This document shows positions 16,981-61,665 of a stretch of DNA of 64,000 bases, in pieces. Below the pieces are notes generated by a model. The model saw nothing but the letters and a program-made list of their open reading frames with translations. It had not been told where the DNA came from and did not search any database. The stretch's first letter is position 1. Every line of letters begins with the position of its first letter. Origin of the DNA: Undaria pinnatifida (taxonomy: Eukaryota; Sar; Phaeophyceae; Laminariales; Alariaceae); contig JABAKD010000030.1 of NCBI GenBank assembly GCA_012845835.1, positions 15,703,210 through 15,767,209 on the forward strand. The letters are read 5' to 3'. The position numbers and the translations under genes are program-made.

Positions 16981-17239
16981 GGCGAGTTGGTCTGGAACGA
17001 ACTGCGTTTACGCAGATTACCCCGTAAATACGACCGGAATAATATTTCTTCGTTAAAAGAATAATGACTCAAGCTGTTCCTGGTTTCGCCATCTGGGACG
17101 GGTACGGTAACAGGTGCTCTCACGTATTCGATATACGGACCGAACTCAGCACGTTGTTCTTCCAGTAATTGTTCTGGGTCAAGCAACGGAAACAGAGACA
17201 CTGCACTAGCAAACAATTCGCTATCCTTCTGTACAAGGT

Positions 17240-24428: not shown

Positions 24429-25975
24429 GATGAGTTCCCCTACTCTCGACCAAGACCTTGCATTTCAATTTTTTTTTTGGGGTGTTTTTTTGAAAGATTT
24501 CGGGTAATGTCGCTATGGGGGCAAAACGATTACTACAGTATTATTTTTTCTTTCTGGCTCCTTTTTTTGGCCATGCGGTCCAACAGGTCAATCTGTCTAT
24601 TTTTCATCAAGCCTCTGTGGTAATAAGTCATAAGTCAATTGATTTCATATCTGAATTTCAACATTTCTGGGAGGGAAAATCAACGTCACACTTTCCCGCT
24701 AAACAACCCATGTCCGAGTTCACGCCGGGCCTCATGCCAGACGCACATACCCCGGCATTGCTTTCATTGACACGGGTTCCCCACAGCAGTATTTTGTACA
24801 AGTACGTTCTCTCATAGTGGAGCCCGCCCGAAGAATTGACTGACGCACGTAAATGTCAATTGCTTTTTCCCCCATTACTTTTTACCAGCAATCAGCAGTT
24901 ACTACTATGTTGTGCGTCTCAATACGCTGTGTTGTTTTTGGTCCAAACGTCTCTGGCCTAGAAAACGTTTTTCAGCAACGATGAGCGCAGTTTGATCATT
25001 GCGTGCCGAGCCCACTACAATCCACAGACCCGCCTGTTGGATAATTGGTAGCTCATCGGTTCCTGACACCATCATTCACGTCGGTCAGGTGTAGCCAAAG
25101 AAGTACGGTAGGATAAGGATTTCGGTTACCGTCACACCACTATTACAACGCTTCGATTGATGCTCGTGCAACAATGTCACCCGCGGGCATTAGTCGAACG
25201 ATATTTTTGGTAGACGGGTATCAGCGAGAGTTAAATCAGAATAGTGGATATGCCGAAGTATAGTACTGCGTCAAGCCGCGAGACGTTGCGCGCGAAAAAA
25301 ACCCGTTGTTATGCCGCTGAGTCCCTCCCGATGCCATTTTAGTTGGGGGAGAGTATCGTTCGACTTTCCACATCCGTTGCTGCAGGAAATAATGAACTAG
25401 CTCATGTATTATTATCGTATATAGATTACCGGGTTTTGGAGTCCGAGACGAATATAAGTCACTGTGAGATTGTCAGATAATCTTTCGTTTTTGGTTTGCG
25501 AAGCTGTAACATCACCCACATAGGATCCGATAACAGGTGTTCCCGAACGCACCAACGCCTTGTCACCCAGCGTGCAGAACATCGGGGGCCTAGCACTGTT
25601 TTGCTGCTTGACAGGTTACGTCCTTACCCCAGGGCATCAGAAACCGGCAAGGCACGTTTGACGAAAGGCGTGAAGAAGCTCGCACTCATGGTGGATACTG
25701 GAGGACGACGGTTCGGACACGTCCCCAGCGCCTCGTTGGAATGGTACACCAGATCACCTTACGCCGCCATTTTTTTTGTTTTGTGTTGTTTTGTTTATGG
25801 TTGTGTTTTTTTTTATGGGGCGTTGAAAGTAAGAAAAATAAATGGTAGACAGGCATGGGCGCAGCGCCGTCGTTTCGAAGATTATCAGTTATCCGGTGTT
25901 TTCTTTGAGAGAAAAATGTCTAAAGATACATATTTTCTTTCGAAGAAGGACGGGTTTGTGCTTGGGTAGGCCTCT
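24429..25975. other. No supported gene
   Basis: T-rich sequence directly right of the LINE (24470-24630) may be its 5' region. AATAAGTCATAAGTCAATTGAT (24622-24643) is echoed at 26627 (AATACGTCATGAGTCAATTGAT), so the two sites share a small repeat. An open frame at 25496-25969 contains an apolar segment (AAIFFVLCCFVYGCVFFYG) but starts at a non-ATG codon and has no other support. Confidence 0.35.
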
Positions 25976-37207: not shown

Positions 37208-38441
37208 CGGTTGAGGGTGGACAAAGGAGGTGAATTCATCTGCAAGGACTTCCAGGACTACAGCCTTCAAACGGGGGTGTAGCTCGACTACGCCAGCACC
37301 AACATGCCGCAGCAAAAAAAGCATGTTCGAACGCGTTAGAAGAACTCTTGGGGCAATGGTTTGGTGTATGCATGCCGACAGCCGACTGCCCAAGTTTCTG
37401 TGGGGAGAATTGATGTTCACTTCGGCGTTTCTGGGCAACAAGGCGCCGTACTCTGCGATCGGCATGCAGTCTCCGTACAAAATGCTATACGGAGCGGAGC
37501 CGGATCTGAGACTTCTTCGAATCATCGGTGCCCGGGCCTTCGTGCATGCTGAGACGTACTCCAAAACGCTTGAACATAAGGCGGTGAAAGGACGACTGGT
37601 TGGGTACAGCAACAACAGCAAGAGCCATCGAGTGTACAACCCGGCAGCCCGGCCAATTATGGAGAGCCGGAAGGCCATCTTCATCGATACACCACCGCGC
37701 CTATTCCCGTCACCGTTGGAAGAAACTTCGCAGCAGGTTTATCCGCCAAGAAACGGTATGGACGACCACAACTACGTCACAGACGACGACCTTCTAGGCG
37801 ATCTTCGCGATATCACGTCCGTGTTGGAACCGACTCCCGGTGCTTTTGCTGATCACATCGCCGTGGGCGGGCTCCCAGACAATCCACAGGTGGCTGAGCT
37901 CTTGGAGCGCATACGCAAGGTCACTAAGAGGGACACGCTGGACGGAGGAGCTGCAGGACCACCGCAAGAAGGGACGGCGCTCGTGGGAACGCCTACAGAT
38001 GGAGATTCGCAGGATGTTGTCCTCGAACCACAGGAGCAGGCGGTGTCACCCGCGGGAGCGTCCCTGGAAACACCACTGGCTGGATCACAGCCGCTTCAAC
38101 GGCGGGGGCATTCGCGTCCAGAAGCAACCCCTGCGGTTACGCGTGCCGGCACTGGAGCGAAATCGTTTGCGAGGCGTGACGCTCACAACAATTCAGGTTC
38201 TGCTCACCTAGCGGCGATCGCCACCGGGCCCGCGCTGTCTAAGCTCCGAGGGCTAAGGCTCTATACCAAGGAAACCCTGCCGGTTGTCGCGCATGAGACG
38301 TATGGAGCAGATTACAATCTGGAGTGTTGGCAGCTAGACTACAACACCGCGTTTCTGAACGCCAATGTCACAGAGGAAGTTCTCGTCAAGATGGCACACC
38401 CGGATACGAGCAATTCAACAAAAATGGAGTCCCGCTGGTAA
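37208..38441 (+). pseudogene. Copia integrase core end and linker to RT
   Basis: After a stop at 37205-37207 the core continues in pieces: LRVDKGGEF (second catalytic Asp) and then the long frame 37230-38441. That frame has the integrase C-terminal landmarks VRRTLGAMVWCMHADSRLP, KFLWGELMFTSAFLGNKAP and RLVGYSNNSKSHRVYNP. An acidic, proline-rich linker follows (TDDDLLGDLRDITSVLEP). Near 38310 it passes straight into ECWQLDYNTAFLNANV, the RT motif-A segment. The RT fingers expected before this are missing, so an internal deletion is likely. Confidence 0.8.
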
Positions 38442-40759: not shown

Positions 40760-41560
40760 CACGCAGGTAGAATATTAATATGCTGCTTGCATCCAGATCA
40801 CCGTCTCTCCCCTCCCAACCCCCCCACCCACCATACCCCCCCCCCCCCCCCCGCCGCCCCACCGAAAAATCACCCCCCCCCCCATGTGATTGCAGGGAAC
40901 CCTCTTGTTGGTCGCCGGGCACGTACCACACGGACGACACCTTCCAACTACGTACGAACGACACTGCTCTTCGGAGCACACGCCTCGTCTCGGCTTTTGA
41001 TCGCATCAGTTCCCCGCCAGCTGTGTCACATAGACCACTCCGCAGCAGAACTGCCCAATCCCCACCCATCAGACTTGTTTGCTCCGCGCTCAGCCAGCAT
41101 GTTGCGCTGCACATCTCCGCGAGCTGCTAGCACAAGCCCCAAGATCGCCCGTCGATCTGTACTTTTTGTTTGCGCTTCGGGGCTGAGGCATATGGACGAC
41201 GCGCCACGAACAAGCATCCTGGAATCAACCCTTCGAAGGACCAGCGACGTGGACTTCGCTTGCTGAAAGAGCCCATCGCCCTGCAAACACCTTTGCTGGC
41301 GGAGCCAGACCGACCTTCGCGGGACCCCCTTGGACTGCGGGCACCGTGCTCTAGGGGTTCATGTCGGGGCTTCTTCATTCAGGTCCTCCCTGGGAAGGAA
41401 CAGGCAGTGCTCGTGAAATGTTTGGGCTTTCTCGTTTGGCGATTTTTTCCAGTACACGCGTTATCGTATGGGTTTCAGTACATACGTCGATCCGTCTTGC
41501 GCGTTGGACAAACTGCTGTGCTCCCTTTCTGATGAAAATAGTACAGCTACTAATTTGACG
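40760..41560 (+). repeat. Dispersed repeat R2, copy 1
   Basis: Shares several blocks in the same order, but in opposite orientation, with 54490-55330: TTGTTGGTCGCCG[G/T]GCAC, CAGACTTGTT[T/C]GCTC[C/T]GCGC followed by TCAGCCAGCATGTTG, ACC[G/A]..CTTCGCGGGACC[C/T]CC, and a region near 41455-41530 with CGTTGGACAAACTG. C runs lie at 40837-40881. No coding frame is convincing; the plus-strand frames are proline-rich at the C runs and otherwise unremarkable. Confidence 0.6.
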
Positions 41561-41977
41561 CAACCCGGACCCCTCCCCAATATTTCGCGACCAACAGCGT
41601 TCCACTGCATCACGTAGCTTCAACCACCATCATCTTCGCAGCGCTACCAACTGCAGTGCAGCTAAATGGCCTCGCTGTCAATACATACATGCCATATACC
41701 GCCGGATTCTTTGCTGTAGAAGTTACTGTACAGCAGCCGAGCCACCTACTTTGCTCCTGCCCACCCACCACATAGCTCGACCGTTTACTGCCCCAGCGTC
41801 CACAGTTACAGCATTGCAGCTCTAACACCCTCCGCTGCTGTGCGAGTGCGCCTTGCAAGTTCGATTCGAGACGTTTTTTGTCTTGGCCCCCCCGTGACTT
41901 GAACTTGAATTTAGTGAACGCTGAAACTCTGTGCTGGCTTTTTTGGGCAAGGCTGTCGGCGTGCGCGATGCCCTATC
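41561..41977. other. No supported gene
   Basis: Sequence between repeats R2 and R1. Only short frames. Confidence 0.3.
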
Positions 41978-42091
41978 GCCGACCTATATCCTTAATGAAG
42001 ACACACAACTCGTAATGCGCGCGATCGGAGTATCACACACAGCTTGCAAAGATGAGTTTCGACGAAATCTTCGATCTCACAGCTGGAGTGT
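41978..42091 (+). repeat. R1 dispersed repeat, copy F (opposite orientation)
   Basis: Reverse complement of the R1 core: CGCCGACCTATATCCTTAAT, ACTCGTAATGCGCGCGATCG, AGCTTGCAAAGATGAGTTTC, ATCTTCGATCTCACAGCTGG, AGTGTATTTTAATTTTTATA. The frame conserved in copies A, C and D (TACKDEF, RSHSWSVF) is open here on the plus strand. Only the core module is present; the G-rich modules are absent. Confidence 0.7.
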
Positions 42092-42129
42092 ATTTTAATT
42101 TTTATAATATTCCACCATTCATAGGTACG

Positions 42130-44060
42130 CGGGGGCTAATACCACTTTCTGTACTGGCACAGCTGCGATAGTGCGGCACTCTGCACTGCTGTCGGCGTAC
42201 TGTCACTTCATAGTGCGGTCGGTGTGGGTGCGGAATTGTTTCAGCTGTCCAGGCGTTAGGCCGTCTTCCTACTGCGGTACATGTGCTGCCGCCCTTCCAC
42301 AATAATGCTAGGATAGTGCTGCAATTTTGTTTTGCAGCTGTCACGACGGATACTGTCCGTTGTTTACAGTTGGCGGAGACGCTGAGCACTATACTTTGGC
42401 GCAAACGCTGCCTTTCTGCTGCTGTTAGTACATGTGCTGCCGTTCACGATGCTGCTAGGGTTTATGCTGACATTTTTTTTCTCTGCACATGATCGGACAG
42501 CTACTGCCCGTCACAGAGCGTTTACTACAGTTCGCGGAGATACTGCACTTTACAGCTTTTAATATAGTGCAAGTGGAGATCAGCCCGTTTGATGCGGTAC
42601 TTGGGGGCAAACAGCCTTTTTTTTTTTTTTTCTCACACTTTTTCTTTCCAGCTTCTGGACAAGCCGTGGTCACGGGTGTCGTCCCTTTCTTCCCCCCGGT
42701 TCTTGCCTTCAATTTTTATCGCGCATAGGGTTCAGCAATCCCACTGCTCGTCGACTATTCTTTCTATTGGGCTGCGGGCGTGCACACCTTTTCTACAGCT
42801 GGTCTTGATAAAATACCACCTTTTTTAAGGCGGTTGGTGTAGTTGTCACCCGTGGTCACAGGAGCAATCTAGCAGCAATCAGCACTACTGTAGGCTCGAC
42901 CGTCCCTCTATAGTGCGGTCGGTGGGGGAAATGCCTTGTTCGGACGCTATACTACCCATCTTGGTGCGGTTGGAATTGCCGTTACCTGTTACCACAGCAG
43001 CGATACTACAGCAATCAACACTACTGTAGGCGCGATCATCCCCCTATAGTGCTTACGATAGCGAAACCACCTTGCTCGGAGGTTATACTGCCCGTTTTCG
43101 TGCGGTTGGTATTGTCGGTACCTATGGGCACAGCAACGGTAATGCAGCGAGCAGCACTACTGTAGGCGCGACCGTCCCCCTATAGTGCGGTCGGTGGGGA
43201 AACTACTTTGTTTGAACGTTGTACTGACCTTAACCTCTGGTTGGCACATGTACAACCCTCTACTGTGCTACCCCCCTCTACACTACTGTTGGTTGGGGCG
43301 GATGCTGCCCGCTTTGTTTTATACGGTTGGCGGCGCGATCCTCAACTGTGCTACCGCCCCCCACAGAACTGTTGGGGCGGATGCTGCCCGTTTTGGTTTT
43401 CATACGGCTGGTTGCGCAATCCTCTACTGTGCAACCCCCCCTACACTACTGTTGCGCGGCCTTTCACTGTGCTACCCCCCTACACTGCACCTAGGTTAAA
43501 TGCTGCTTCTTTTGGTGCGACGAGCGTCAGCGTGTAGACCCTTCACTGTGCTACCCCGTACACTACACCTAGGATAAATGCTGCCTGTTTTGGTGCGATG
43601 AGCGTCGGCGTGCTGGGCGAACCTTTACTGTGCTTCCCCCCTACACTGCGCACGGGATGGACGCTGCCTGTTTTGGTGCGATGGGCGTGGGCTTCTTGTG
43701 CAACCCTTTACTGCGCTACCCCCCCCTGCACTGTACCTTGGTTAAATGTTGCCTTTTTTGGTGCAATGGGCGTGGGCGTTTTGGGCGACGCTTTACTGTG
43801 CTACCCCCCTCGCCTAGGTGAAATGCTGCCTGTTTAAGTGCGATGGGTGCAGACGTACCTTTTACTGTGTTGCACACCCTGCACTGCGGTTAGGGTCAGT
43901 GCTGCCTATTTTTGGCCGCTTTTACTGCGGTCTGTGCGGGCGTTTCCCGTATGACCCTACGGTCAGACTGGGCGCTGCTCTTATGTGGCGGTTTGGTGAA
44001 TGGCACCCTTCTTACCGCTGTCCTCCTTTTATACGGCTAGTTGGCGTGGCTGCTACCATC
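42130..44060. repeat. Diverged tandem repeats, units of about 100 bp
   Basis: The right half (43240-43950) repeats TTTACTGTGCTACCCCCCTA ... GG[T/A]TAAATGCTGCCTGTTTTG ... GTGCGATGGGCGTGGGC at about 90-100 bp spacing, for seven or more units. The left half has a longer unit containing ACTACTGTAGGCGCGACCGT, CCCCTATAGTGCGGTCGGTG and GTTGTCGGTACC-like phrases near 42885, 43015 and 43155. Earlier still are looser copies with GTACATGTGCTGCCG (42278, 42429). No stop-free frame spans the array. It ends just before the gypsy gag start. Confidence 0.7.
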
Positions 44061-44247
44061 ACTGATGCTGGACGGAGTCGAGGCCCATATCTTCCTGTTT
44101 GGTGAAACACAGTATACCTCTACTTGCAGCAAGGACACAACAACAATATATCTGCCTCCATAGCTTCTTTACGCGTCGTTCCCATCCCACCACCTTCCTC
44201 CACCCCCCCTCCTTCCGCTGCCCTCCCTACAGACAGCAAGCAACAAT

Positions 44248-46036
44248 ATGTTTATCAGTGAGGAAGCGGGCTACTCGGGGCAGGCCGAGGTCTTCCACGC
44301 GCCCCAACCTGGATGCCCACGAGACAGGGAGAGCTCGCTTGAGATCCTGCGACTCGAGACGGGGGGAATCACCGGAGGCGGGTTCCGGTGACGAGACAGA
44401 AGACGGACCACCATACCTTCACCCGGACCCACCAACCCAGAGGGTCGACTCGCCGGTTCGCGCTGAGAACAAGACGGACCAACCTTCACCGGACTCCGGG
44501 GCGTCTCGACGCCAGCTTTCACCAGCCCCGGGGGAGCGCCGCCAGCTGCCCCCCCCCCGCTCTCGACAGGGCACCACCGCGGGCACCTGGGCTCTCCGTA
44601 CTCGTCAGAGCGCCACCCCCAGGGCATCCTGGACCTGGGCGCACATGCCGGCCCCTTGGACTTGGCATATGCGACAGCGCGGGCCCAGCGGGCGCTCGAC
44701 GACGCTAACCAGATGATTTTCCGTCGTGAAGCACGCCGACGTCGGTTTGACGAAGATATCGAGCAGGCGAAGACCGCTGCGCGGGAGGCGTCTCTGGTAG
44801 TGGAGAGGGCGCAACAAGCTCTCGCTCAATCAGTTGCGTCGGCTGCGGCAAGAACTACCGCGCCCCCCTCGCTTTTGACGCGCCCGCAGGGCGTCGCATC
44901 CCAGCGACCCCGACCCTAGGACGCCGCCTTTTTCAAGAGCAGCGTCGCGTGCATGGCGTCTGCACCGAGGGTAGAGTTCTCCCCAGCGTTGGCGCCCGCG
45001 GTGGTGGAAACAGCCTCCGCCCTCCTCACGTCAGAGAGGCCGGCGTTGTGGCAAGTGGACGCCCTTTCAGCGGAAGCGGCCTGGACTCGCGTGTATGGTA
45101 CGCCCTATACCTGACAGACGAGAGCCGCCCCGACCCTTGCCCTTGTCAAGGCCCGAATGATGGCCCACGACGAGGCCCCCGACCCCGTCTTCTGGCCGAA
45201 CCCCGGAGGAAACGTTGGCGGAACACAACCGGGGGAAACAGCGACGCAGCGGCAGTCGCGACCGCGGGGACCGCAACCGTGGGGGTGGCAGCAAAAGTGG
45301 TGGGGGTGGCGACCACCACCACCGCCGCGGGGATGACAGCGGTGGTGGAGGCGGGGGAGGCGCATCGGGTGCTGGTGTGGCCGAGGCCTCCGCCGAGGGG
45401 GCAACTTTGGTCCAACAAACGGGGCAGTTGGCCGTAGCTCTGGCGGAGGCAACGGAGGGCGGAGGAACGGCGGTGGGGCAGAGGGCGCCGCCGAGGTGGC
45501 AATTTTGGTCCAACAACCGGGGCAGTTGGTCGCAGCTCTGGCGGAGGCAACGGAGGGCGGAGAAACGGCGCGAGAGGACGTTCAGCGTGGGACGGCTCGT
45601 CAACCTCCTCCCGATCGTCTTCGTTCTCGAGCACGGACGACCACCGCGAGGTGGCCGTGGTAGCAGGCAAGAGGTGTCGAGAGTCATGGCAGGAGGAGCA
45701 TCTGGGCCTGAGGCTTTTACCCTCCTGGTGCGTTTGCTGATGACGCACTTCGGCGGGGTGGACACGGAGGAGGGCTACACTAAGTTGCACACTTTTGAAA
45801 TATGTAACGGCATGCCTTTTTCTGATTTCAGTCGGGAGTTTCGCGTACTTGTGCCGACCGCTACGGGGACTGAGCGTGTTTTGTTTCTGGGGATGGATGT
45901 GGTGTTGGAGATGGTTCGGGTGGCGGTAAATGAGCAATTCTCGGCTCTCATGCCTGCGTTGTACCCTTATTCGAAGGCAACGAACCCGCGGCCATACGCC
46001 TCGTTGGATGCTATATGGCGGGCGTTTAGTGACTAA
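44248..46036 (+). pseudogene. Gypsy gag, frameshifted
   Basis: ATG at 44248 opens a frame beginning MFISEEAGYSGQAEVFHAPQ that stops near 44390. Its continuation uses other frames. 44656-44919 encodes a coiled-coil-like stretch (ARAQRALDDANQMIFRREAR, EDIEQAKTAAREASLVVERA). 45215-46036 encodes a Gly/His/Arg-rich region followed by a capsid-like part: EAFTLLVRLLMTHFGG, EICNGMPFSDFSREFRVLVP, VLEMVRVAVNEQFSALMPAL and YASLDAIWRAFSD-stop. The last block has the spacing of a retrotransposon gag capsid domain. Gly-rich DNA at 45330-45370 and two copies of a CAATTTTGGTCCAACAACCG-like phrase (about 45400 and 45500) may have driven the frameshifts. Confidence 0.65.
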
Positions 46037-47939
46037 GCGCATAATAAGACACCTGCCGTCAACGGCGAATATTTTTTTCTCTGCCTGTTTCTTCGACGGG
46101 AGAGCGGTGATCCGCCCCGTCGGGACCCCGACCCGCCGATCGTGGGCGCGGCCAGGGCCGAGTGCCCTCCCAGTCGCGTTCGTGGCAGACGGAATCGAGC
46201 CATCATTCAACTGTCATGCCCGTCGACGGTTCATCTGACCCTTGGCTTGGCCACAAATCGAACTGCTGGCCACTAGAAGAGCATCATTATGCAAAAGGTT
46301 TCGCCGTTATTGCCTTGTTTAAGACAGACGACCCTCCCCTTTGGAGCGGCCTCCTTCCATCTCGTGCTGATGCCCTCCGAGAAAATCGAGGGCTTTGCTC
46401 AACTGCCACGACGACAACCATTCCTTCAAGCACTTTTACGCATCTTTTCATTACTGCGAGTGGCTGCTTGAACCCTGAACTTGGCCAACTTGGCGACGAT
46501 GACGCACACCGACGTTAACAAACACGCATGGCCTGCTATCGCCGAGACGATAAATCTTATCGCTCGAACAACAAGAAAAATCGTCGCCATCTTGTAGGTC
46601 AATCGCGAGGGTACGATAAATCTTATCGCTCGAACAACATGAAAAATCGTCGCCATTTTTTATGTCAATCGCGAGGGTACCACCAGGATTAGGGCCAGGT
46701 AACCTGTCACAACGATACCACATACACGTCGGATCACGATGGTGGTATCTCACGCTTGCCCGCCTCTTCTGCCCCCGCTCCTGCCCCTCGAATGCGCTTT
46801 GGAGCCGCCCACAACCCGGGTGGAAATACTCTCGCGCGCCAGCCTGGCACATTCCGTAACGGCAATCGACAGCTCGACGGTGGTACGGCACCGTCGACAA
46901 CACTGTCGGGGGGCACCCCGTTTGATTTCAGAAGATGCTCGTGTTCTGTTACTAACCTGTCCAATAACGCAGCACAGATTGCCTCTGTTATGAGCCCACG
47001 GGCTCCTACGCCGTTTACAGACGATCTCACGGCGTAGTACCTGCGGCGGAAACTAGCGCTTCCAGCATGATTTCCTCCAGCCAGTTTTGTTTTTTTTCGA
47101 CGGCGAGAACGCGCGCTTCCAGCGACGTTCCCCTCGGTCATGGTCTGAGTTCGGCGACGGGAACCGCGCTTCCAGCACCGTTTCCCTCAGCCGCGGCAAA
47201 AACTCGGCCATGGGGGTACGCGCTTCAAACGCCGCCCTCATTAGCCATATACGGGAGCCTGCGCTTTGAATGCTCCCCCCCAGGCACGCGTCGCGCAGCA
47301 ATATAGCTGCGGTGACGGCGCGTCGCCGTTTTACGCGAACGTGTTCATTCCCCCTTTTACCTGACCAGGCGGTGATGGTCGGGTTGAGGTGTGGGACGGT
47401 CGACCCTCGAACACATTTTCTGACCACGAGGGGGCGGTCGGTTTGAGGTGTGGGACGGCCAACACTAAAACACCAAGACCTTTTGCGAGGCGCGATCAGG
47501 TGTTTGCTCGCGATAACAGCGGGCGTTCTGTCCTTTTTCCCATCAAGGAGGAGTCGACAAGATTAGCTACGTCGTCCCCCTTCTCCAACAGGCATAACGA
47601 GAAAGAGCCTCCTCGGGTTAATATATGATTGCCACCTGCCCAAGCCCTGCTCCAGAAAACGCCCACAGGGTCTACGGACCCTGCTTCGTTATTGTGCACG
47701 TGAACCCACGTGTTTCAGGCTACGTCTGCCCCAGTGGCACAGAAAGGAGATCTGACACTGCGCGACGGGCCAGCGGTGACGCCACGGCCTCCAGCTTGAT
47801 CAGCTGGACGCTATTCCCGTAAATTTACGGAAGAATCGCGCCTCTCGTCAAGCAAAAACAGCTCAGAGCCCCTGCCCCTTCGGGCGCAGTTAGAGCAATT
47901 TTCTTGCGATTATACGCCACGGAGAGAAGAGGCCACGAC
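46037..47939 (+). other. Gypsy post-gag linker with small tandem repeats
   Basis: No domain recognised. 46547-46680 is a tandem duplication of a unit of about 65 bp with GATAAATCTTATCGCTCGAA and GTCAATCGCGAGGGTAC. 47055-47230 has four loose copies of CGCGCTTCCAGCA..GTTTCC. 47368-47465 repeats GGTTGAGGTGTGGGACGG. 46740-47037 encodes a Ser/Thr/Ala-rich stretch (FGAAHNPGGNTLARQPGTFR). Composition and position fit an unstructured gag-pol linker. Confidence 0.45.
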
Positions 47940-48480
47940 GCGAGAAACTGTGGGTTTGAACTCGCGTCGTGCTCCCGAGGCCTGGTGTTCCTGAGGGGGA
48001 CACTGCAGGCCCAAAGTGCCGAGAGTTGGTGTTCCCAGAGGGGGACAATGCAGACCCAAATGTCAACGAGGCTACCGACGGTTCGGCACCGTCGGTGTCG
48101 GACTCTTTTCGGGTGTAGTGAGGGCGGCTTCTCACGAGTTTCCCCCAGTGTGTGAGGAGGACCCGAGGCGAGGAACCGTGGGTTTGGACTCGCGTTGTGC
48201 TTCCGAGGCCTGGTTTTCCTGAGGGGGACACTACAGGCCCAAAGTGCCGAGGACTGGTGTTCCCAGAAGGGGACATTACAGACCCACAGATGTCCAACGA
48301 GGCTACCGACGGGTTGGCACCGTCGGTTTTACCCATTTTTTGGGCGCAGTTAAAGCCGATTCTCGCGTTTTCCCGCCGACGAACGAAGAAGACCCGAGGC
48401 GAGAAACCACGGGTTCGGATTCGCGTCGTGCTATCGAGGCCTGGTGCTCCCGGGCGGGGACATTGCAGACCCAAAGTCAA
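47940..48480 (+). repeat. Tandem repeat of about 230 bp abutting the NADAR domain
   Basis: Units start near 47940, 48170 and 48402 with GCGAG[A/G]AAC[T/C]. Each contains TCGCGT[C/T]GTGCT, CGAGGCCTGGT, and GGGGACA[T/C/A]T-type phrases; the first two also contain AACGAGGCTACCGACGG. In one frame the units encode LVFPEGDxxDPxxxNEATDG-like peptides: VFPEGDNADPNVNEATDGSA in unit 1 and VFPEGDITDPQMSNEATDGL in unit 2. Unit 3 is shorter and reads LVLPGGDIADPK, running in frame into the NADAR segment. Stops between units show decay. Confidence 0.75.
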
Positions 48481-48482
48481 AC

Positions 48483-49000
48483 ATGGCTTTTGACCCTTCT
48501 CTCGAAAACTCCACGGACAAAGTGGTGTTATTCTGGCAGCCCCCATCCTATTTTCCACCGTGGTCTCCTTCGTCGTTTGCCGTGGACGACGTACCATACT
48601 CTTGCGCGGAGCAGCACATGATGGCCGGAAAGAGCAGGCTTTTTAAAACCATCGAGTAGTGTAGCTCATCATGTCGTCGCCTAGTCCAAGCACACGCAAA
48701 CGCATCGGTCGAAGCGTGCGCAACTTTGTCTCCGGTGTTGGAGACAGGGACAAGCAAAACGCCGTATTATCTGGCACCTACGCCAAATTCACGCAGAATC
48801 CAGCCATAAAAGAATTCCCTTTTGAGCTCTGACAACAGGCTTCTGGCTGAATCCAGCCCTCTGGACCCAGTGTGGGGCATTGGTCTCCGGGCGGATGATA
48901 CCAGGGCCAACAACCCATGCCAGTGGAGAGGAAAAAATTGCTCGATGAGGCCCTTTCTGCCGTTTGCGAAGCTATTCGCGACAGTGAGACCGGTTCGGCG
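48483..49000 (+). pseudogene. NADAR (YbiA-like) domain inside a gypsy element
   Basis: Family features appear in order across three frames. 48483-48659: VLFWQPPSYFPPWSPSSF, then VPYSCAEQHMMAGKSRLF (the F-W, W-P-F and E-Q-x-M-M-x-K-x-x-x-F pattern of NADAR), then a stop. 48668-48831: RIGRSVRNFV and VLSGTYAKFTQNPAIKEF, then a stop. 48822-48950: NRLLAESSPLDPVWGIGLRA with the SPxDxxWGIG signature, then NNPCQWRGKN. A final shift gives LLDEALSAVCEAIRD. Known NADAR proteins are N-glycosidases (YbiA acts on riboflavin intermediates; others reverse DNA ADP-ribosylation by DarT). It lies between gag and the pre-protease stretch, in the same orientation, so it belongs to the element and not to the host. 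This copy is broken by at least three lesions. Confidence 0.85.
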
Positions 49001-49104
49001 CCCCCGGCCTCCCCTAGTCGGTTCTGCACCTACACTGCGAATGCAAGAACCAAGAAATCTCGTCCGCGCCGCGGCCGGGCCGTTAACAGCGGCCAGCGTT
49101 CGCA

Positions 49105-49620
49105 ATGCTTCTCCTTCGGAGTTTCCGACCTATTTCTCGGGCGCATTGGCCAACTAAAAGCCGTGAAGTTTTAGAGATTGCATCTGGCGTCGGCCCTGAC
49201 CTTGCGCTGTCAGAACACTGCCCCTGTTTCGTCGGAGATGCTGTGACGCTGGACGACGTTTCGCTCACTATGAAAATCGCGTACATCAGTCGAGCAACGC
49301 TCGACTCGGAGAGGCACTGGACCCCTCTAGATTTGGGGACCGGCAGCATTGTTTGGGATCCTGAACGCCTCCGAGGGTACAGTGGGAAACAAAGTTCCGC
49401 ATATCCTCCGGCCACAAGACACAGGAGAGCATTGGCAAAGTGGGGACTTTCAATGCACGAGTCCAGCGATAGCTTGAGTTCGTCACCGCGTTCGATTGCA
49501 CGCTCGAGTACCGCAAAGGCAGCACCAACGGCATCGCCGATTTTTCTGGCCCCCTTGCCAGAGCCTGCTACGGAATACGACTACAGTGCCTTGACAAACT
49601 TCAACCCCGTGGGGTTGACA
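49105..49620 (+). pseudogene. Pre-protease stretch joined directly to RNase H
   Basis: 49105-49270 encodes VLEIASGVGPDLALSEHCPC and ends DDVSLTMKIA. Without a gap this becomes YISRATLDSERHWTPLDLGT, an RNase H motif of Ty3/gypsy elements (compare IAYFSQRF in the 17-18 kb element). After a frame shift come QESIGKVGTFNARVQ, a stop, and LEFVTAFDCTLEYRKGSTNG, the end of RNase H (compare ALQNFDCTVKHVTGKSN at 17.4 kb). The protease core and all RT motifs that should lie between are missing. The junction is at about 49270-49285. Confidence 0.7.
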
Positions 49621-50439
49621 AGCCCCAACCCTGTCGGAGATAGCGATATCTACCTCCTACGGACCGGCGAGCTGCGCGCCTCCTATTCGCCGATCCCAGG
49701 GGTCGGTTTGAGGGGACTAGTGGCCCGCACCAAAAGCCCTGCTTCGGGTGGGCTCGTGCCCCGCACTGAACATGCTGCCTTGGGTGGGTTCCCTCTCACC
49801 TCTACCGCATTTTACTATTTGCGCACACACGAGGCACGTATAAGGATTGACGGCCTTTGTGCTTCCCCGGAGAGATTAGTCGCTCGTGTTTCTGCCTCCG
49901 TCGCCACTGCCGATGGCTGTACCGGCCGCGGGTCAATTTCGCGTACCGCTGACACCGGTTTCGCATCTGTTTCTGCCATACCCATCGAGGGCGGCACGGG
50001 CTCCGCAGAAGCCCTGGCTACAGCAGCGTCCATCGCACAGCCGACTTCTCCATCAAGGAATCCTACACAGGAGACGCCCCCCGCCGCGACCACCGGTTCG
50101 ACTGTGTCCGTTTTCGCCTTACTTGGCACTCCAGCTCCTCCGCCGTCGACGACACGCTGATGAACAGCGACAGCAACGGGTAATGCACCCCGGCTGCAGA
50201 TTATGGATTCGGGCCCGGCGGGCCCCCTCGGCCATCTTCCAGACGAGGTACAACCCCGCAGCGTGTCCCACGGCCGAGGCCGGCTCCGCCCGCCGCCGCG
50301 ACCCCTGCTCTTGCCGACTAACCGGTCCGCACGGTGTCACTACCGTCCGACCGCGACCACGCAGAGCCTATATGGGAAGTCCTATCTTACGGGTCACGCC
50401 TTCTCCTGGTGACACGCCGACTGCACATACAAGGTCGGA
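49621..50439 (+). other. Gypsy RNase H-integrase linker
   Basis: Ala/Pro/Thr/Ser-rich coding-like sequence across several frames. A local direct repeat (GGTGGGCTCGTGCCCCGCAC type, 49700-49790) encodes G-GLV-RTKSPASGG and G-LVPRTEHAALGG. No domain recognised. Confidence 0.45.
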
Positions 50440-51651
50440 CGCCCTCGGCGACGCTGCTGAATTGCGCTTAGCTGATTCCGTGGCGCGTTATTCACATGCC
50501 GATTGGAAGCGAGAGCAGCACGCGGAGCCGACTTGCCACGCCATGATGCGTTACGTCTCTATCGGCCGGCCATCGGTCCTGCCGCCCGACTTGTTGACGT
50601 GCTACCCCTCGCATAAGCGTCCATCCCTCTCAGACAACAAGGAGCTGGCGGGTAAGGGTCGACTACGTACAACCGACGACAACATCGTCCTACTCGTCCG
50701 TAACCCGACACTGCCGCCAACAAGGTCTGACAAACCCAAATCTGTGCGGCGAGCTGCTTGCCTGCTAAACGACGAGCCAGTTCGCATTTACGTTCCCTGC
50801 TCATGCACCCTTGGAATAGGCAAGCTTGTCACTCGACGACGACGACGGCCTCTTGTCACCTCGGCACCACGCGCACGTTGCGTATGCTGGAGCGGTTTTA
50901 TTGGTGGGTTGGCATGAATGTGTGCACCTGGTGATGGCTTCGCCACTGCTTGAAGTTCCAAGCGCGGAAAACCCCACGGCTGACTGTCCACTGGCCCATC
51001 ATCTCAATGTTTTTACCGGAAGGTCCAGGTGGCGCCGTCAGTGTTGACTACGGCCCCCTTCCGGTCACACCACGAGGCAACACCTACATCTTGCTGTTCA
51101 CCGATCGCTTCAGTCGTCGGGGCGACACGTTCCTCGTCACTGCCGCTGAGTTCACCTTGGAGGGTGCAGCCAAAATCCTGGTGAACCAATACATCCCCTT
51201 GTGGGGGTGCCCGCGCACCATACTCTCGGACAACGGATTGCAGTTCTGCTCCAAGCTTTCGCAAGCTGTATATCAGCTATTGGGCGTGCACAAACTTGCT
51301 ACAAGCTCCTATCATCCCAACTGTAACGGGGGCATTGAGCAGGTAAACCAAGCTATGGCCCAAATGCTGGCTATGGTCGTCAACGAGCGACAAGACGATT
51401 GGGACTTGCATCTGCCCCACGTCGAATCCGCTTACAACAATTCCGTCAGCGCAGCGACAGGTCTGGCGCCCAACGAGGTCCACATGGGCAGACTCCCACG
51501 GTTCCCCCTGACGGTTTTCGACCGCACTGGTGTCGTGGGACACCAGAGTCTGACCCGTGACCACCTAGCCTATTGCGACTTGGCCACCGACCGGCAAGCG
51601 CGCGAACGACATTGTCCGCGCACACCACGCCCTCGCCGTTTCTCGTATTAA
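50440..51651 (+). pseudogene. Gypsy integrase
   Basis: The upstream part (50440-50800) encodes ADSVARYSHADWKREQHAEP and GKGRLRTTDDNIVLLVRNP, typical of the segment before the integrase zinc finger. The H2C2 finger spans about 50800-50980 across two frames; the last Cys appears as Phe in HCLKFQARKT. The core (50950-51651) has the DDE triad: VSVDYGPLPVTP (first Asp), TILSDNGLQFCSK (second Asp) and NCNGGIEQVNQAM (Glu). It continues with HVESAYNNSVSAATGLAPNE. The triad residues are intact, so this is the best-preserved enzyme domain of the element, although the finger and the 3' continuation are frameshifted. Confidence 0.85.
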
Positions 51652-52695
51652 CCGCAGAAACTCCGCCCTCGCCGACGCGCTGCGTCCATCACCTAAGTTC
51701 GCTACGGGTGGTTGGGCATGGGTGTACCATTCTGCCTCTACCATCCGCCAGGGTGTGGAGGCGAACACCGACGCCAAGGTACTCAAGGTCAAGCTGGCGC
51801 TTAACCGGACTGGCCCGTACAAGATTCTGGCAGTCGGTCCCTGATCCGCCGCCGAGACCCCGGACGGTTCGCAGCTCGAGAACAACCTCCTCTATTTGAA
51901 TCTTCCTTCCGACCTGCCTGGTGCGGACGCTCGTCGGTGTGTGGCCATCGAGCGCTGCAAGTCCTGCGTCAACCCCCACGACAGTGGGGACATGCCCAAA
52001 TACCTACTGGTGGGGCTGACGCAGTACGTACTCAACATTTTTTCCAAGAAGTCCCCGCCGTACCACGTCACTCAAGACGACGTTTCGACCACCCTCCAAC
52101 GGCTGGAGGTGGAGCAGATCACGGGTCCTTAGTCAGTACGGGGGCGAGGTGGAGTCATCGCGGTGCTATACAAAACGCATTGGGCGGGACTCTCCGAAAC
52201 TTCCGGGAGCGGGAAATGGACCTTCACCTCTCCAGCTCCCACATCTTGCGTTATTGGGCCCGAACCCCGGACCAGCGCCGCCAACCCAACCGCCTCTACC
52301 GCCGAATGCGGATCGGGGTGGCACAGCAAGAGCTCTCCCGCAACAACGGGGAACATTTCCTAGCGCCGGACTACGCCTATGGTCCCCGCGCCGATTGGCT
52401 CCGTCGCTACCACGACACAGTACTTCCCGAGGGAGCCCACTTTTGGTACAAGGGAGACGATGGGTTATGATGGCTTGGAAAAATCAGCGCGAGAACTATC
52501 GACCACAAGATATACCTGGTCTGCTTTCTGGACGGCCCGGGACCGATTAAACTTCATCCTCCCCCAGCGCGCTACACGACTTCGACGGGAGCCGTACGAG
52601 GCTCTTGGTGCCAGCACGTTCACATCGCCAGTGCGTTTCCTCGGGGAATCCAACGTAATGTAGACGAATCTCGAGGCGCGGCCGTGGCCAGTTGA
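51652..52695 (+). pseudogene. Gypsy integrase tail: GPY/F-like module and chromodomain-like region
   Basis: 51660-51842 carries GGWAWVYHSASTIRQG and LKVKLALNRTGPYKILAVGP, the GPY/F-type module, then a stop. 51896-52132 continues (PSDLPGADARRCVAIERCKS, GLTQYVLNIFSKKSPPYHVT). Near 52160-52260, YKTHWAGLSE in one frame and REREMDLHLSSSHILRYWAR in another form a chromodomain-like pattern (aromatic-K-x-H-W ... E-x-D-L ... LRYW). 52380-52470 has AHFWYKGDDGL, then a stop, and the tail ends at TGA 52693-52695 after GPGPIKLHPPPARYTTSTGA. Chromodomains in gypsy integrases guide insertion to marked chromatin in known cases; here that is inference. Confidence 0.65.
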
Positions 52696-53860
52696 CTTTC
52701 AAGCAGCCACCGCTCCTCGATAGTTCTCCATTTTTTGGGGTTATGAGGTATGAGTCTTTGCCTTTGGGCTGTTCGTAGTGTCCTGAGAGTCTTCCGGTTT
52801 TGGGGCGGTTTTTTCATTTTTTTTCTTTTCGTCCTGCCGAACGCCCTGCTCAGTACCAGGCCAAAATTCGGGTAAAATGCCGCTATCTGAGGCGCAGGGC
52901 TGTCGTTTTTTCGTCGTTGTTATTTTTTGCCCTGCCGACGCCCTCCTCAGCCCAGAGCCGGGCAACGACAAGGGTACCCTGTTCGCGCGTAACGAGGTAC
53001 AGGGCTGTGTACGGGTCTGTGTGTCATCTTTAATCTTTTTGTGTGCTCTATTTGTTCTACTTTGATTTTTCGGTTAAACCCTTTCCCCCCTCGCCGGGCT
53101 GTAGGTGTTGCCACCTTCCATCCCGGGTATTTGTCGTTTCCTCGCCTAACCCCCCGCCATGCCGATGGCCCGCGGGAGGGGTTTCGCATGACTTCTCCCT
53201 TGTGTTAGCGCCTGTGTTCCCCTCCATATCGACGAGGGCTCGCCTCGCCATAGTACCTTTTCTGTGGTTGGTTTACCGTAGAGCCTTTCCTGCCCCCCCC
53301 CGCCACACCGGCGGTATGCGGTAGGTTCTAGAGCCTTTTCTGCTCCCCCCGCCACACCGGCTGCACGCGGCAGGTTTTTGATGGGTGACCTTCGCCTCGT
53401 TGTAGGGTCTGCGTTTCCTTCAACTGCTTTTCTTCGGGTGTTCCTGGCTCTATAGCCAGACCGTTAGAGGTGTGGGAGTGGGTTTTGAGGAGCCGCATCT
53501 TCGACTCATGGTCTAGTTTGTAGAACCGGAGTTTCCCCGAATCTCCCATATTTCTGCATATGCGGCTCATCAGGGTGGGCTAGTGTTAAGGTACGGCCTC
53601 GAAAGGCCTGTAAGTATCCGAATTTGAGATAATTTGGATGAGTTTCGTATGATAAGGTTGGCGCTTTTTATTCGTGAAAGTTAGAAAATAGATCGGAGGC
53701 ACGTGCCTCCAATCTCAGAAAGCCATCCGGGGCTCTGGTGGCATCGAATAAAGCTACGACTACGAAGGCTACGAAAATGAGTACTCTCCGAGGACCTGCT
53801 CAATTAGCAGACCTGCAGGGGACACTCCGTGTCTCCGCCCAATAACCTTACGATAGGTTA
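52696..53860. other. Possible 3' LTR/UTR of the gypsy element; no gene
   Basis: T/C/G-rich sequence with internal duplications. A unit of about 50 bp with TAGAGCCTTT[C/T]CTGC...CCCGCCACACCGGC occurs twice (53280 and 53329). A CCTGCCGA[A/C]CGCC or GCCCTGC-type phrase is repeated near 52832 and 52930. No matching copy exists left of 44248, so LTR status is unproven. 53580-53860 is AT-rich and leads into the LINE tail. Confidence 0.4.
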
Positions 53861-58710: not shown

Positions 58711-61381
58711 CTATAACGGTGGAGCCAAATTTATGACACTTTGACGTCGATCCACCTGCAGGGTCTCGATCGAGTCGTCGTCGTCTAGATTAACCCAGCC
58801 GTTTATTCCTCCCGTTCCCACCGCAGCCATGAAGGACAACACCTTGCTTTGAATCGTGAAGCCCACGGAGCTCCAGCTGCACGCCAATACGATCAGTATG
58901 GCCGCTATCCCCGTGTTCCATCCGATCGCCTCCCCCAGCAGCACCGCGGCAAACGCGGTGCCCCAGATCGGCTCGGACGAAAAGATTACGGCCGACTCTG
59001 CCGCCGAAACCTTCTCCATAGCCAGAGTCTCGAAGAACACAGTCATCGATGTGGTCACAAGCCCCACCCAGAGGAGTGACAAGGGAACGGCCAGCGATGC
59101 GGAAGGCTGTAAAACGGTCTCGTGGAGCCTTTCGAAGGACACCGGGAACTGCCCGGCTTGGGCGCACCAGCCGATCGCCAGGACCGCCACCGTCAGCAAA
59201 TGCGCCGCCACAATACCGAGCGTATCCCCGGGATGTTTCCGAGTGCTCCGCTCGGTCAGCCAGAAGACGACGCCAAAACTGTTACAGTATCGGGAGTAGA
59301 ACAGTAATATCACATTCGGGGGTAGGGTTTGGCGGGGACGTGGTTAAATCGATGACTGTTGTGGAACCTTGCGAACATCATGTAAGGGGGAGAGCTGGGG
59401 TATGAAATTCTGGTGAAAGGTAGGTCCTTGCAACCAAGAGCAAACTCAAAACACTCGTAAGGTACGCATCATAGGATGCAGCGTTGTGCGTCCTGTCTCC
59501 CTCCTTCTATCCCTTTCTCGAGTGATCACCCAAACACCTGAATTCACATAACGCGAAACACAACAAATCGAAAACCAGCAGCAACACACCCAAGGGGGCC
59601 GTAGAATCTTAGCTTAAACTTACGGCCACCTCCTCGCCGTGCGGCACGGCGTATAACCCCTTTCCAAGCCCAAACTCACCACACCGGCTGCGCCAGGGCC
59701 CACGCATCCCCCGTGCTTGGCCGTGACTCCACCCCGATAAGTTCTAGACACGCCACCCCCGCCACCGCCAGTAGAGCCGGAAACCAGGGGCCGTTGAGAG
59801 TGGCAAGCACCACCCCCTGGCACTTCCTGTCCGCCACTTCAGTTGCCTTAGCTTTCTTCTCCGTCTCCTCGTCTGCAGCACCGAAAATTGCGTCCATGAT
59901 AGGGACGACGATCACGGACAGACTGCAGATGAAGGCAGCTGTTGAAGCTGCCGTGGTCGTGAGTGATTTTGACTGTGCCCAGAAGCCAACGGCGTCAAAC
60001 AAGCCGATCTGGGTAGAGGAGACATATGAGGAGTGGCGACGTTAGCCGCATGAAAATGGCGGTGCCACCAGGAGCAGGAATGTATAAACATATTCAGGCA
60101 CATCGGTAGCTGAGGTGATATGTTGTGGGCGTTGTCTTGTTGGGGAGTCTCATGGGCTTTGCGCTTGGCCAGGGTTCCTAATCGTCTCAAGCGAGTAACA
60201 TTTCAAACGTTCCGTCAAACACATAGGTTTCGAAACCGCCCCCCCGCAAAGCCCGTGGTGATTAGAACTCGTACACAGCCCGTGGGAGGTTATACCCTCA
60301 ACTGTCTACTGAGCAAGCCATGTTTATCGTTGTCTTCCCTGCCACCCCTCGGTGCTATCCCTAACGTTTATCGTACACAGATTCAGGTCGCCGTTGGCTC
60401 GTCGCTAATCGTTTTTGCCGACTAGCTCTTTCGCACCCTCGACGAAACAGCTACAAAACTGTGACAGTCTACTGTTAGCATAAGTCCCACAATAATCGCC
60501 ATAGACGTGCCGTGTCATAAACGTGCCGTGTCAAAACATACTTTTCCTCGACACAAAAGACACTTTACCTCGACACCTGCTCGGAAGACTCCGGGATTTA
60601 TCTTCATCAGGAACGGCAGGAACGGGATCACCGCTACCGTGAATCTTAACGCTGTCGCCAGACTCATGGGAACGGTCTCCTCTATTAACTTTACGCACCC
60701 GAAGTTGGTTCCGTACAGCATGGCCGCGCCTGCAAGCAACCCTCTCGAAGCCCACAAACCTGCGCCGCTACTCACCGCCTTCATCTCTGCCTGCTCTTCC
60801 TCCTGCCCCGCCTTCTCCCTGCCACGTTCCGCCTCCATGGCATCGACATTCCTCTCTCCTTCATCGACTGACCATGGTTCAGCAGAGAAGAGATGGGTTT
60901 TCTGCAGTGACGTTTTCGACTGGTGGTCGGCGGAACCGTAGGAGGTGGGAGTGGCAGCAGTTTTGGAAAATAATCGGTTGGAGTTTGGTTTCCATCCGTC
61001 GCTGCTGCTACTGCTGCGGTCGTCGCACATTTCGGATGAGGATCGCGTTGCACGAAACCTCGTGTAGGGCCGCTGCAACGTGCGAGGAGACGGCCCAGCT
61101 GCTATCGATGGATCTGCGTGAGCGAGAGCGGTGATGCGCCGCCTATCTGTCGCTGCGTACGCGAGCCATGACCCTGGTGCGAGGCGGAGAAGATTTGGGG
61201 AAATCGTGCCGTGGTTGGGAGATTTAAGCATCACGTCATGTTTCACGTCTGTCGTTACCTTCACGGTTTCGGGTGAAAATGGCGATAAGAAGTGAGATAC
61301 ATCATTGTTCATTCCAGCGGGACTCAACAAGACGTGACAACAAGCAAGAGCCGATTGAAGAGCTGTATATTGCTTGCACAT
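58711..61381 (-). CDS. EamA/DMT-type membrane transporter, three exons
   Basis: Minus-strand gene: exon 1 61381-60569 (813 nt), intron 560 bp, exon 2 60008-59680 (329 nt), intron 401 bp, exon 3 59278-58711 (568 nt). The total of 1710 nt codes for 569 residues and a stop. Junctions are GAG|GTAAAG, CCCAG|ATC, GTG|GTGAGT and AACAG|TTT; they join in frame. Residues 1-210 are polar and Ser-rich. Then come ten or so hydrophobic segments: GLLAGAAMLYGTNFGCVKLI, ATALRFTVAVIPFLPFL, STAAFICSLSVIVVPIMDAI, PALLAVAGVACLELIGV, AVPLSLLWVGLVTTSMTVFF, and the EamA signature AESAVIFSSEPIWGTAFAAV with LLGEAIGWNTGIAAILIVLA. EamA proteins export or exchange small metabolites; the substrate cannot be told. The target membrane is unknown. 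A partial paralogue lies at 6.1-7.2 kb. Confidence 0.85.
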
Positions 61382-61422
61382 TGATCTATTGCGGGACTCG
61401 TACCTGTCACCAATGTCCTGAG

Positions 61423-61665
61423 AGGGGGGTCACTTTGAGGTCTCGTTTGGGGTGACTCGGGGGAACTCTCGCGAGTGACCTCCCTGATCCTTGCAGTCTT
61501 AAGCTTTTGTGCTGTAATTATTTTGCGATAATGATCCGCAACGGAATGGTAAGCCACGCTGCGCGAAAAAAGTAGCCTGCACTATTTCTTTGTCCAAGAG
61601 GTACAGTCACTCGTACGAGTGGCGAAAACCGAGCAGTGAAAATAAAGGCACCCCCGCTACCGTAG
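61423..61665. mobile_element. Degenerate MITE related to the 10.75 kb element
   Basis: Reverse complement of the right end reads CTACGGTAGCGGGGGTGCC and continues TTTTCACTGC, matching the left end of the element at 10754. Inside, CACTCGTACGAGTG..TGTACC, TTGCGGATCATTATCG and TCACTCGCGAGAGTTCCC align with CACGACGAGTGGCTCTGTACC, TTGCGGATCGATTTCG and TTACTCGCGCGAGTGACC there. The other terminus (near 61423, GGGGGGTCACTTTGAGG) has lost the CTACGGTAG core. Confidence 0.5.

What the first reader, a model, noticed from the sequence alone, without database searches (positions are those of the whole stretch)
47940..49000. NADAR domain carried by a Ty3/gypsy retrotransposon
Seen: the complete ordered set of NADAR motifs (WSP-F, AEQHMMAGKSRLF, GRSVRNF, YAKFTQNPA, SPLDPVWGIG, W-GKN-LL) lies between gag and the pol remnant, on the same strand. 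Known: NADAR enzymes are N-glycosidases, including YbiA on riboflavin intermediates and the partners of DarT that reverse guanine ADP-ribosylation of DNA. Inference: the element may have captured the domain to counter host ADP-ribosylation of nucleic acid or to alter NAD-linked defence. This would be an anti-defence or self-protection module in a eukaryotic retroelement. It may already be noted in surveys of NADAR domains; I cannot check.
Basis: partly seen in the sequence, partly recalled or inferred. Interest (0 to 1): 0.88.

Follow-up and report, generated by a model that had tools for sequence, protein, structure and literature searches.

The report
NADAR enzyme inside a jumping gene
The stretch is a dead, shortened copy of a retrotransposon whose still-intact relatives in the same genome carry an enzyme domain that in other organisms strips ADP-ribose from DNA and RNA; this pairing was published for a brown alga in 2025, so the window adds a further case and some new detail.

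Summary
NADAR (PF08719) lies at window 48,489-49,009, + strand, in four frame-broken pieces, inside a Ty3/gypsy relic of about 13 kb (40,885-53,845). The relic lacks protease, reverse transcriptase and half of RNase H; 39 other scored copies share that deletion junction, so it belongs to an old non-autonomous subfamily.

The capture is not a one-off. The same 511-Mb genome holds two gypsy families (A, B) with NADAR inside the pol frame; 23 of 23 listed copies with frames of 2,000 aa or more carry it about 1.5 kb before RT. Most comparisons show purifying selection (dN/dS 0.15-0.35 in 8 of 12) and catalytic residues are kept. One in-frame UGA separates gag from pol, so NADAR is probably made within Gag-Pol.

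As a kind it is known: Dinatale et al. 2025 (PMC12477816) report NADAR near the N-terminus of Pol in an Ectocarpus gypsy lineage. Added here: the shared-deletion subfamily, the UGA arrangement, the selection test, and a weak hint that A and B carry different NADARs. The anti-defence role is plausible but untested.

The parts
40885..53845 (+). Ty3/gypsy relic colinear with family A of the same genome, 5' end truncated
   Evidence: blastn, matches of 67-84% identity along it; small unmatched gaps between the pieces
42813..43912 (+). tandem repeats upstream of gag (units about 136 and 83 nt), also present in family A
   Evidence: the repeat finder D1, D2; blastn to L031
44110..46896 (+). gag remnant, named by colinearity with the family A frame that precedes the UGA
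   Evidence: tblastx/blastn; no Pfam hit
47901..48458 (+). tandem repeat spacer (about 230 nt unit) before NADAR
   Evidence: the repeat finder D3, D4
48489..48647 (+). NADAR piece 1 (one frame)
   Evidence: 83% identity to family A in frame; Pfam E 2.5e-4
48629..48811 (+). NADAR piece 2 (other frame, two stops inside)
   Evidence: 69% identity; Pfam E 3e-6 for 48680-48832
48810..48938 (+). NADAR piece 3 (first frame again)
   Evidence: 67% identity; Pfam E 5e-8 for 48810-49157
48932..49009 (+). NADAR piece 4, C-terminal end (other frame)
   Evidence: 69% identity; no Pfam hit on its own in frame 48899-49174
49270..49276 (+). junction of the shared deletion of about 2.1 kb (protease, RT, first half of RNase H)
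   Evidence: L032:632-2718 has no counterpart; window plus 39 other copies match across it
49276..49544 (+). RNase H remnant (second half)
   Evidence: tblastx to L032 and L034
50842..51603 (+). integrase
   Evidence: rve E 5e-8 in frame 50935-51651; 86-90% to family A
51596..52668 (+). C-terminal part of Pol after integrase, frame-broken
   Evidence: tblastx 84-87% to L032
53584..53845 (+). 3' LTR
   Evidence: 86% to the 267-bp LTR of a family A copy; no 5' LTR found in the window

Best explanation
SHOWN: the window holds a dead member of an old subfamily that lacks RT, of a Ty3/gypsy lineage whose intact relatives in the same genome encode a YbiA-type NADAR domain with complete active site early in Pol, before protease and RT. 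INFERRED: since gag and pol share one frame split by a single UGA, NADAR is made only when that stop is read through, as part of Gag-Pol, and is packaged with protease, RT and integrase. INFERRED: in or near the particle it removes ADP-ribose from guanine bases of the element's RNA or cDNA, so that reverse transcription and integration are not blocked. The subfamily without RT would have used products of intact elements in trans.
For: NADAR in frame with RT, RNase H, H2C2 and rve; 23 of 23 frames of 2,000 aa or more carry it, 69 of 87 rows examined overall. dN/dS 0.15-0.35 in 8 of 12 comparisons, five bootstrapped with intervals below 1. E43, K50, E125 kept in 38 of 39 (A) and 13 of 13 (B). 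Related element NADAR folds as 8bau and YbiA. UGA between gag and pol: last stop before NADAR in 20 of 30 family A loci, and in the one family B copy read. Shared deletion: 39 other scored copies. NADARs tested by others remove ADP-ribose from guanosine in DNA and RNA (PMC11543638 section 12 and passages; PMC11833690 passages).
Against: No activity, expression or packaging data. D86 is not kept and R93 is K in A. NADAR changes faster than RT between A and B (pN 0.37 against 0.14). Two comparisons at low divergence gave dN/dS 0.61 and 1.43, two more were spoilt by gaps; shared variants of B give 0.56 from 3 variants. 18 of 87 rows have no listed NADAR. A host enzyme that ADP-ribosylates nucleic acid was not found; only one partial PARP match, others not answered.
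Confidence: 0.4

Rival explanations
1. The NADAR acts on small NAD-derived molecules (free ADP-ribose derivatives or signals made by the host) and so blunts a host defence, as proposed for phage NADARs.
For: Same active site would serve; the view is argued for phages in PMC9503650 (passages).
Against: The same passages argue that NADARs in polyproteins of eukaryotic RNA viruses mainly target macromolecular ADP-ribose. Placement in Gag-Pol favours a target inside the particle (inference).
Confidence: 0.25
2. The domain processes or repairs the element's RNA intermediate in some other way, as Dinatale et al. suggest, or serves as a nucleic-acid-binding module rather than as an ADP-ribose hydrolase.
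For: Suggestion of RNA processing in PMC12477816 (section 5).
Against: Conservation of E43, K50 and E125 points to catalysis on a ribosyl bond.
Confidence: 0.2
3. It works as a metabolic N-glycosidase on riboflavin intermediates, as E. coli YbiA was described, with no part in transposition.
For: YbiA-type residue E125; the YbiA role is cited in PMC11543638.
Against: Selection within retroelement copies at a constant place in Pol is hard to explain by a host metabolic role.
Confidence: 0.05
4. A host NADAR fragment was trapped by chance in this one copy.
For: Only the broken state of the window copy.
Against: All 80 NADAR loci compared have family A (56) or B (24) as best match; RT lies downstream in 27 of the 30 loci with enough flank; 23 of 23 long frames carry NADAR.
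Confidence: 0.01

Closest known systems
NADAR-bearing Gypsy lineage of Ectocarpus (Gypsy-12_Ec32 and others; Dinatale et al. 2025, PMC12477816)
   Same: [quoted passage not shown] Ectocarpus proteins P0123, P0130, P0144, P0192 carry NADAR with RT and/or RNase H
   Different: Other genome; RT of A and B 54-65% identical to three of those Ectocarpus proteins. Shared-deletion subfamily, UGA between gag and pol and selection test were not in the parts I read ('stop codon' and 'readthrough' do not occur in the main text)
Phytophthora nicotianae NADAR (PDB 8bau)
   Same: Fold and catalytic residues E43, K50, E125; nearest solved sequence, E 8e-15
   Different: Not described as part of a retroelement in the passages read; D86 and, in A, R93 differ
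DarT1-associated NADAR antitoxins (DarG1, BC4488 subfamily)
   Same: Same superfamily and E88/K95 equivalents
   Different: Position 125 is E here, D there
NADARs in Tx1 LINE ORF1 of oyster and in polyproteins of nidoviruses, hepe-like viruses and picornaviruses
   Same: NADAR carried with replication proteins of RNA-based elements
   Different: Other element classes; seen in paper passages only, sequences not compared here

Membership tests
NADAR superfamily, YbiA subfamily | Match to PF08719 over its length | tested here: met
   Intact relatives 167-177 bits, cut-off 35.1; window copy only in pieces
NADAR superfamily, YbiA subfamily | YbiA-like fold | tested here: met
   Model of related element protein P0124, NADAR part pLDDT about 95, top matches 8bau E 6e-12 and 2b3w E 2e-9; families A and B themselves were not modelled
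NADAR superfamily, YbiA subfamily | Glutamate at position 125 with E43 and K50 | tested here: met
   38 of 39 (A) and 13 of 13 (B) at each
NADAR superfamily, YbiA subfamily | Hydrolase activity | not testable with these tools
   needs a bench assay
DarG1 (BC4488) antitoxin | Aspartate at the position of E125 | tested here: not met
   E in 38 of 39 and 13 of 13
DarG1 (BC4488) antitoxin | Adjacent DarT gene | not tested
   PF14487 search did not complete
Ty3/gypsy (Metaviridae) | RT and RNase H before integrase | tested here: met
   Families A and B; in the window RT is deleted, RNase H half and integrase remain
Ty3/gypsy (Metaviridae) | Long terminal repeats | tested here: met
   One family A copy: 267 bp, 100% identical, TG...CA; no clear LTR pair seen for the one B copy
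Ty3/gypsy (Metaviridae) | RT placed with gypsy in a tree | not tested
   Pfam and order only
[quoted passage not shown]
   NADAR about 407 aa (A) or 318 aa (B) after the gag stop, before the protease DTG motif and RT
Ectocarpus NADAR gypsy lineage (Gypsy-12_Ec32) | RT in the same lineage | tested here: inconclusive
   54-65% identity to three Ectocarpus NADAR proteins; the paper's consensus sequences are not held here
Ectocarpus NADAR gypsy lineage (Gypsy-12_Ec32) | C-terminal chromodomain on integrase | tested here: inconclusive
   No Pfam hit in the C-terminal pieces of A and B; no more sensitive comparison tried

The most novel reading that the evidence does not exclude
A lineage of LTR retrotransposons packages its own nucleic-acid de-ADP-ribosylase by stop-codon readthrough, and has exchanged that enzyme at least once: families A and B share 81% of RT but only 49% of NADAR, and A's NADAR is nearer to several other elements' NADARs than to B's. 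That is what a race against a changing host ADP-ribosylation defence would leave.
Probability: 0.2. Interest if true: 0.78.

Novelty: new member of a known kind. Interest (0 to 1): 0.42.

Why it matters
If the domain works on nucleic acid, it would point to host ADP-ribosylation as an untested barrier to retrotransposons in these algae and to a eukaryotic parallel of the DarT-NADAR conflict of bacteria and phages. The association itself is in print (PMC12477816). Added here is evidence that the domain is kept in every listed copy with a full-length frame, mostly under selection, that it lies in the part of the polyprotein reached past a UGA, and that a subfamily spread after losing RT, in many copies with NADAR also broken. 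That makes the question testable in vitro.

Tried and rejected
Host gene trapped in one copy: rejected. Chance motif match: rejected. DarG1-type antitoxin: rejected by the residue at position 125.

Led nowhere or weak: the search for related loci in viral contigs with P0001 gave no relative. A third protein search, with family B NADAR, scored none of 351 candidates at E 0.001 or better; it also did not return NADAR proteins of fitting length known (P0137, P0144, P0192), so I give it no weight. In one search, L060 (0.77) and L067 (1.48) are spoilt by gaps; L084 (0.61, dS 0.06) and L086 (1.43, dS 0.04) are readable and go against strong constraint at low divergence. Domain exchange between A and B is weakly backed: p-AU 0.040 for A and B held together, 0.058 for all gypsy NADARs together, long branches present; fast evolution in B would look alike. 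Of the 150 scored RT matches (1,651 candidates), one search examined 87: the top 60 rows and 27 family-B-like rows that I picked by hand. The 63 rows left out all have frames under 1,000 aa; at least four of them have 94-97% RT identity. The NADAR lists are capped at 150 scored of 1,454 and of 1,679 candidates, so absence from them is weak evidence.

Full report
What is there. The window (G000:C38:15703210-15767209 of a 511,146,479-base assembly) holds a gypsy relic from about 40,885 to 53,845 on the + strand, colinear with an intact element elsewhere in the same genome in matches of 67-84% DNA identity. NADAR homology runs from 48,489 to 49,009 in four pieces that switch between two frames; Pfam finds NADAR in three of them. 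The window scores 114 bits against the intact domain, the best of 20 shuffled windows 25 bits.

What the relic has lost. Between 49,270 and 49,276 about 2.1 kb of the intact element is missing: protease, reverse transcriptase and the first half of RNase H. A 251-base probe across that junction finds 916 candidates, of which 40 were scored: the window and 39 others at 90-93% identity, all across the junction. The NADAR stretch finds 811 candidates, of which 40 were scored: the window and 39 others at 90-91%. So the deletion is inherited: a subfamily multiplied after losing RT, presumably with enzymes supplied by intact elements. Among the 120 listed proteins nearest to the window's NADAR (of 418 hits), 16 end at the same frame break as the window copy, while 64 read on to the WGIG-like motif. 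In 40 of the 84 with a readable motif the tryptophan W89 (Phytophthora numbering) is glycine, as in the window, and in 33 it is tryptophan. A second count, on 112 of the 120, gives glycine 55 and tryptophan 41.

Intact relatives. Family A: NADAR E 5e-52, followed in the same frame by RVT_1 (2e-27), RNase H (7e-31), integrase zinc domain (2e-12) and rve (4e-8). One copy has two 267-bp LTRs, 100% identical, TG...CA, spanning 15,460 bp, so it inserted recently. Family B: NADAR at 4e-49 with the same order. The 30 best-scoring loci hold 25 distinct NADAR sequences with a median of 4 differences in 450. In 30 further loci (L038-L067) RT lies downstream on the same strand in 27; L059 and L060 show neither RT nor RNase H, L064 RNase H only. 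Among RT matches, NADAR lies upstream in 23 of 23 with a pol frame of 2,000 aa or more (17 A, 6 B), mostly 1.52 kb (A) or 1.58 kb (B) away; in 26 of 36 with frames of 1,300-1,999 aa (A) or 1,000-1,999 aa (B); and in 69 of the 87 rows examined. The 18 without a listed NADAR may be deletions or lie outside the capped lists.

Where in the polyprotein. In family A the gag frame ends in a single TGA and pol goes on in the same frame. That TGA is the last stop before NADAR in 20 of 30 loci, in three nearly identical contexts; two more (L013, L024) keep a TGA there but have later stops; in the other eight the fixed position reads otherwise, through indels or other stops. The one family B copy read has the same arrangement and nearly the same peptide before the stop. 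NADAR begins about 407 aa (A) or 318 aa (B) after the stop. Readthrough and packaging as Gag-Pol are my inference; there are no expression data here.

Selection and chemistry. Of 12 comparisons of older copies with A or B, 8 give dN/dS 0.15-0.35, two at very low divergence give 0.61 and 1.43, and two are spoilt by gaps. Bootstrap intervals: L087-A 0.185 (0.11-0.33), L064-A 0.147 (0.08-0.27), L082-B 0.241 (0.10-0.57), L085-B 0.242 (0.11-0.50), L062-B 0.320 (0.14-0.71). The window pieces against A give 0.25. Among 39 intact-like A copies, shared variants have pN/pS 0.16 (4 non-synonymous, 7 synonymous), singletons 0.60 (54, 26); in 13 B copies 0.56 (2, 1) and 0.39 (14, 10). On the Phytophthora enzyme (numbering checked against PMC11543638 section 12), E43, K50 and E125 are kept in 38 of 39 A and 13 of 13 B, D130 and W133 in 39 of 39 and 13 of 13; D86 is not kept, Y84 is F, R93 is K in A. 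E125 places it in the YbiA subfamily. In a model of a related element protein (P0124) the NADAR part has pLDDT about 95 and the rest is low; it matches 8bau (E 6e-12) and YbiA (E 2e-9). Literature: NADARs tested, YbiA and T4 included, remove ADP-ribose from guanosine in RNA, and E. coli C7 NADAR was inactive on phosphate ends (PMC11833690, passages); the Phytophthora NADAR acts on guanine-linked ADP-ribose (PMC11543638, passages and section 12); YbiA-type NADARs keep activity but differ in protection (PMC11125620, abstract and passages).

Origin. In a tree of 92 NADAR domains, family A, Ectocarpus Pol and similar domains share a clade with five standalone NADARs, four of them named as brown-algal (31 rows, 98/85); next to it are P0094, P0108, P0114 and P0136, from unnamed sources. 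Family B falls outside, with one old copy, L066. RT disagrees: A and B are 81% identical and each 54-65% to three Ectocarpus proteins. Holding A and B together in the NADAR tree costs 12.4 log units, p-AU 0.040; all gypsy NADARs together 9.9 units, p-AU 0.058. This hints at exchange of the domain but does not prove it. A search with the standalone Ectocarpus protein P0104 found no match above 57% identity among 150 scored of 1,679 candidates, so no close ortholog was seen in this genome.

Known or new. Dinatale et al. 2025 (PMC12477816; outline with abstract, section 5 part 1 of 2, passages; [quoted passage not shown] they suggest bacterial origin and a role in RNA processing. In my searches for NADAR, YbiA or DUF1768 with retrotransposon terms (listings only, capped) no other listed title bears on the subject. 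The host is most likely a brown alga, inferred from the nearest named proteins (Pylaiella, Scytosiphon, Ectocarpus). So this is a further member of a known kind. In the parts of that paper I read I did not find the shared-deletion subfamily, the UGA between gag and pol, a selection test or the A/B discordance; supplements were not available.

How it most likely works. Shown: domain, active site, mostly purifying selection, constant place. Inferred: made as Gag-Pol by readthrough, packaged, and used to strip ADP-ribose from guanines of the element's RNA or cDNA. Host ADP-ribosyltransferases were hardly examined: one partial PARP match (33.6 bits); DarT and TRPT1 searches did not complete. I put the mechanism at about 0.4 and the identity of domain and element at about 0.97.

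Noticed in passing
window 16084-18463, - strand: Another gypsy pol: integrase (H2C2 7e-19, rve 1e-7) and RT/RNase H (2e-17, 2e-24).
   Followed up: partly
window 21506-24464, - strand: LINE-like remains: Exo_endo_phos E 2e-4 in frame 23244-24464; no Pfam hit for 21506-22216.
   Followed up: partly
window 37215-38441, + strand: Copia-like pol remnant: SH3_retrovirus domain E 4e-16.
   Followed up: partly
window 58711-61429 and 6110-7234, - strand: EamA-type transporter exons at 58711-59343 (E 2e-10) and 60515-61429 (E 1e-3); the frame at 6110-7234 shares a long similar stretch with the latter (seen) but gives no Pfam hit: a possible duplicated host gene.
   Followed up: partly
P0056, P0075, P0104, P0107: Standalone NADAR proteins of Pylaiella, Scytosiphon and Ectocarpus; an N-terminal Cys/His-rich stretch, perhaps metal-binding, is seen in them.
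   Followed up: partly
L033:368-517 and L034:7687-7836: A 150-bp, 99% identical inverted repeat lies about 15.3 kb apart around the family B copy; origin unknown.
   Followed up: no
P0136; P0137 and similar: NADAR with a WD40 domain in one protein, and with PARG-type, ADP-ribosylglycohydrolase and macro domains in others, by the precomputed Pfam column.
   Followed up: no
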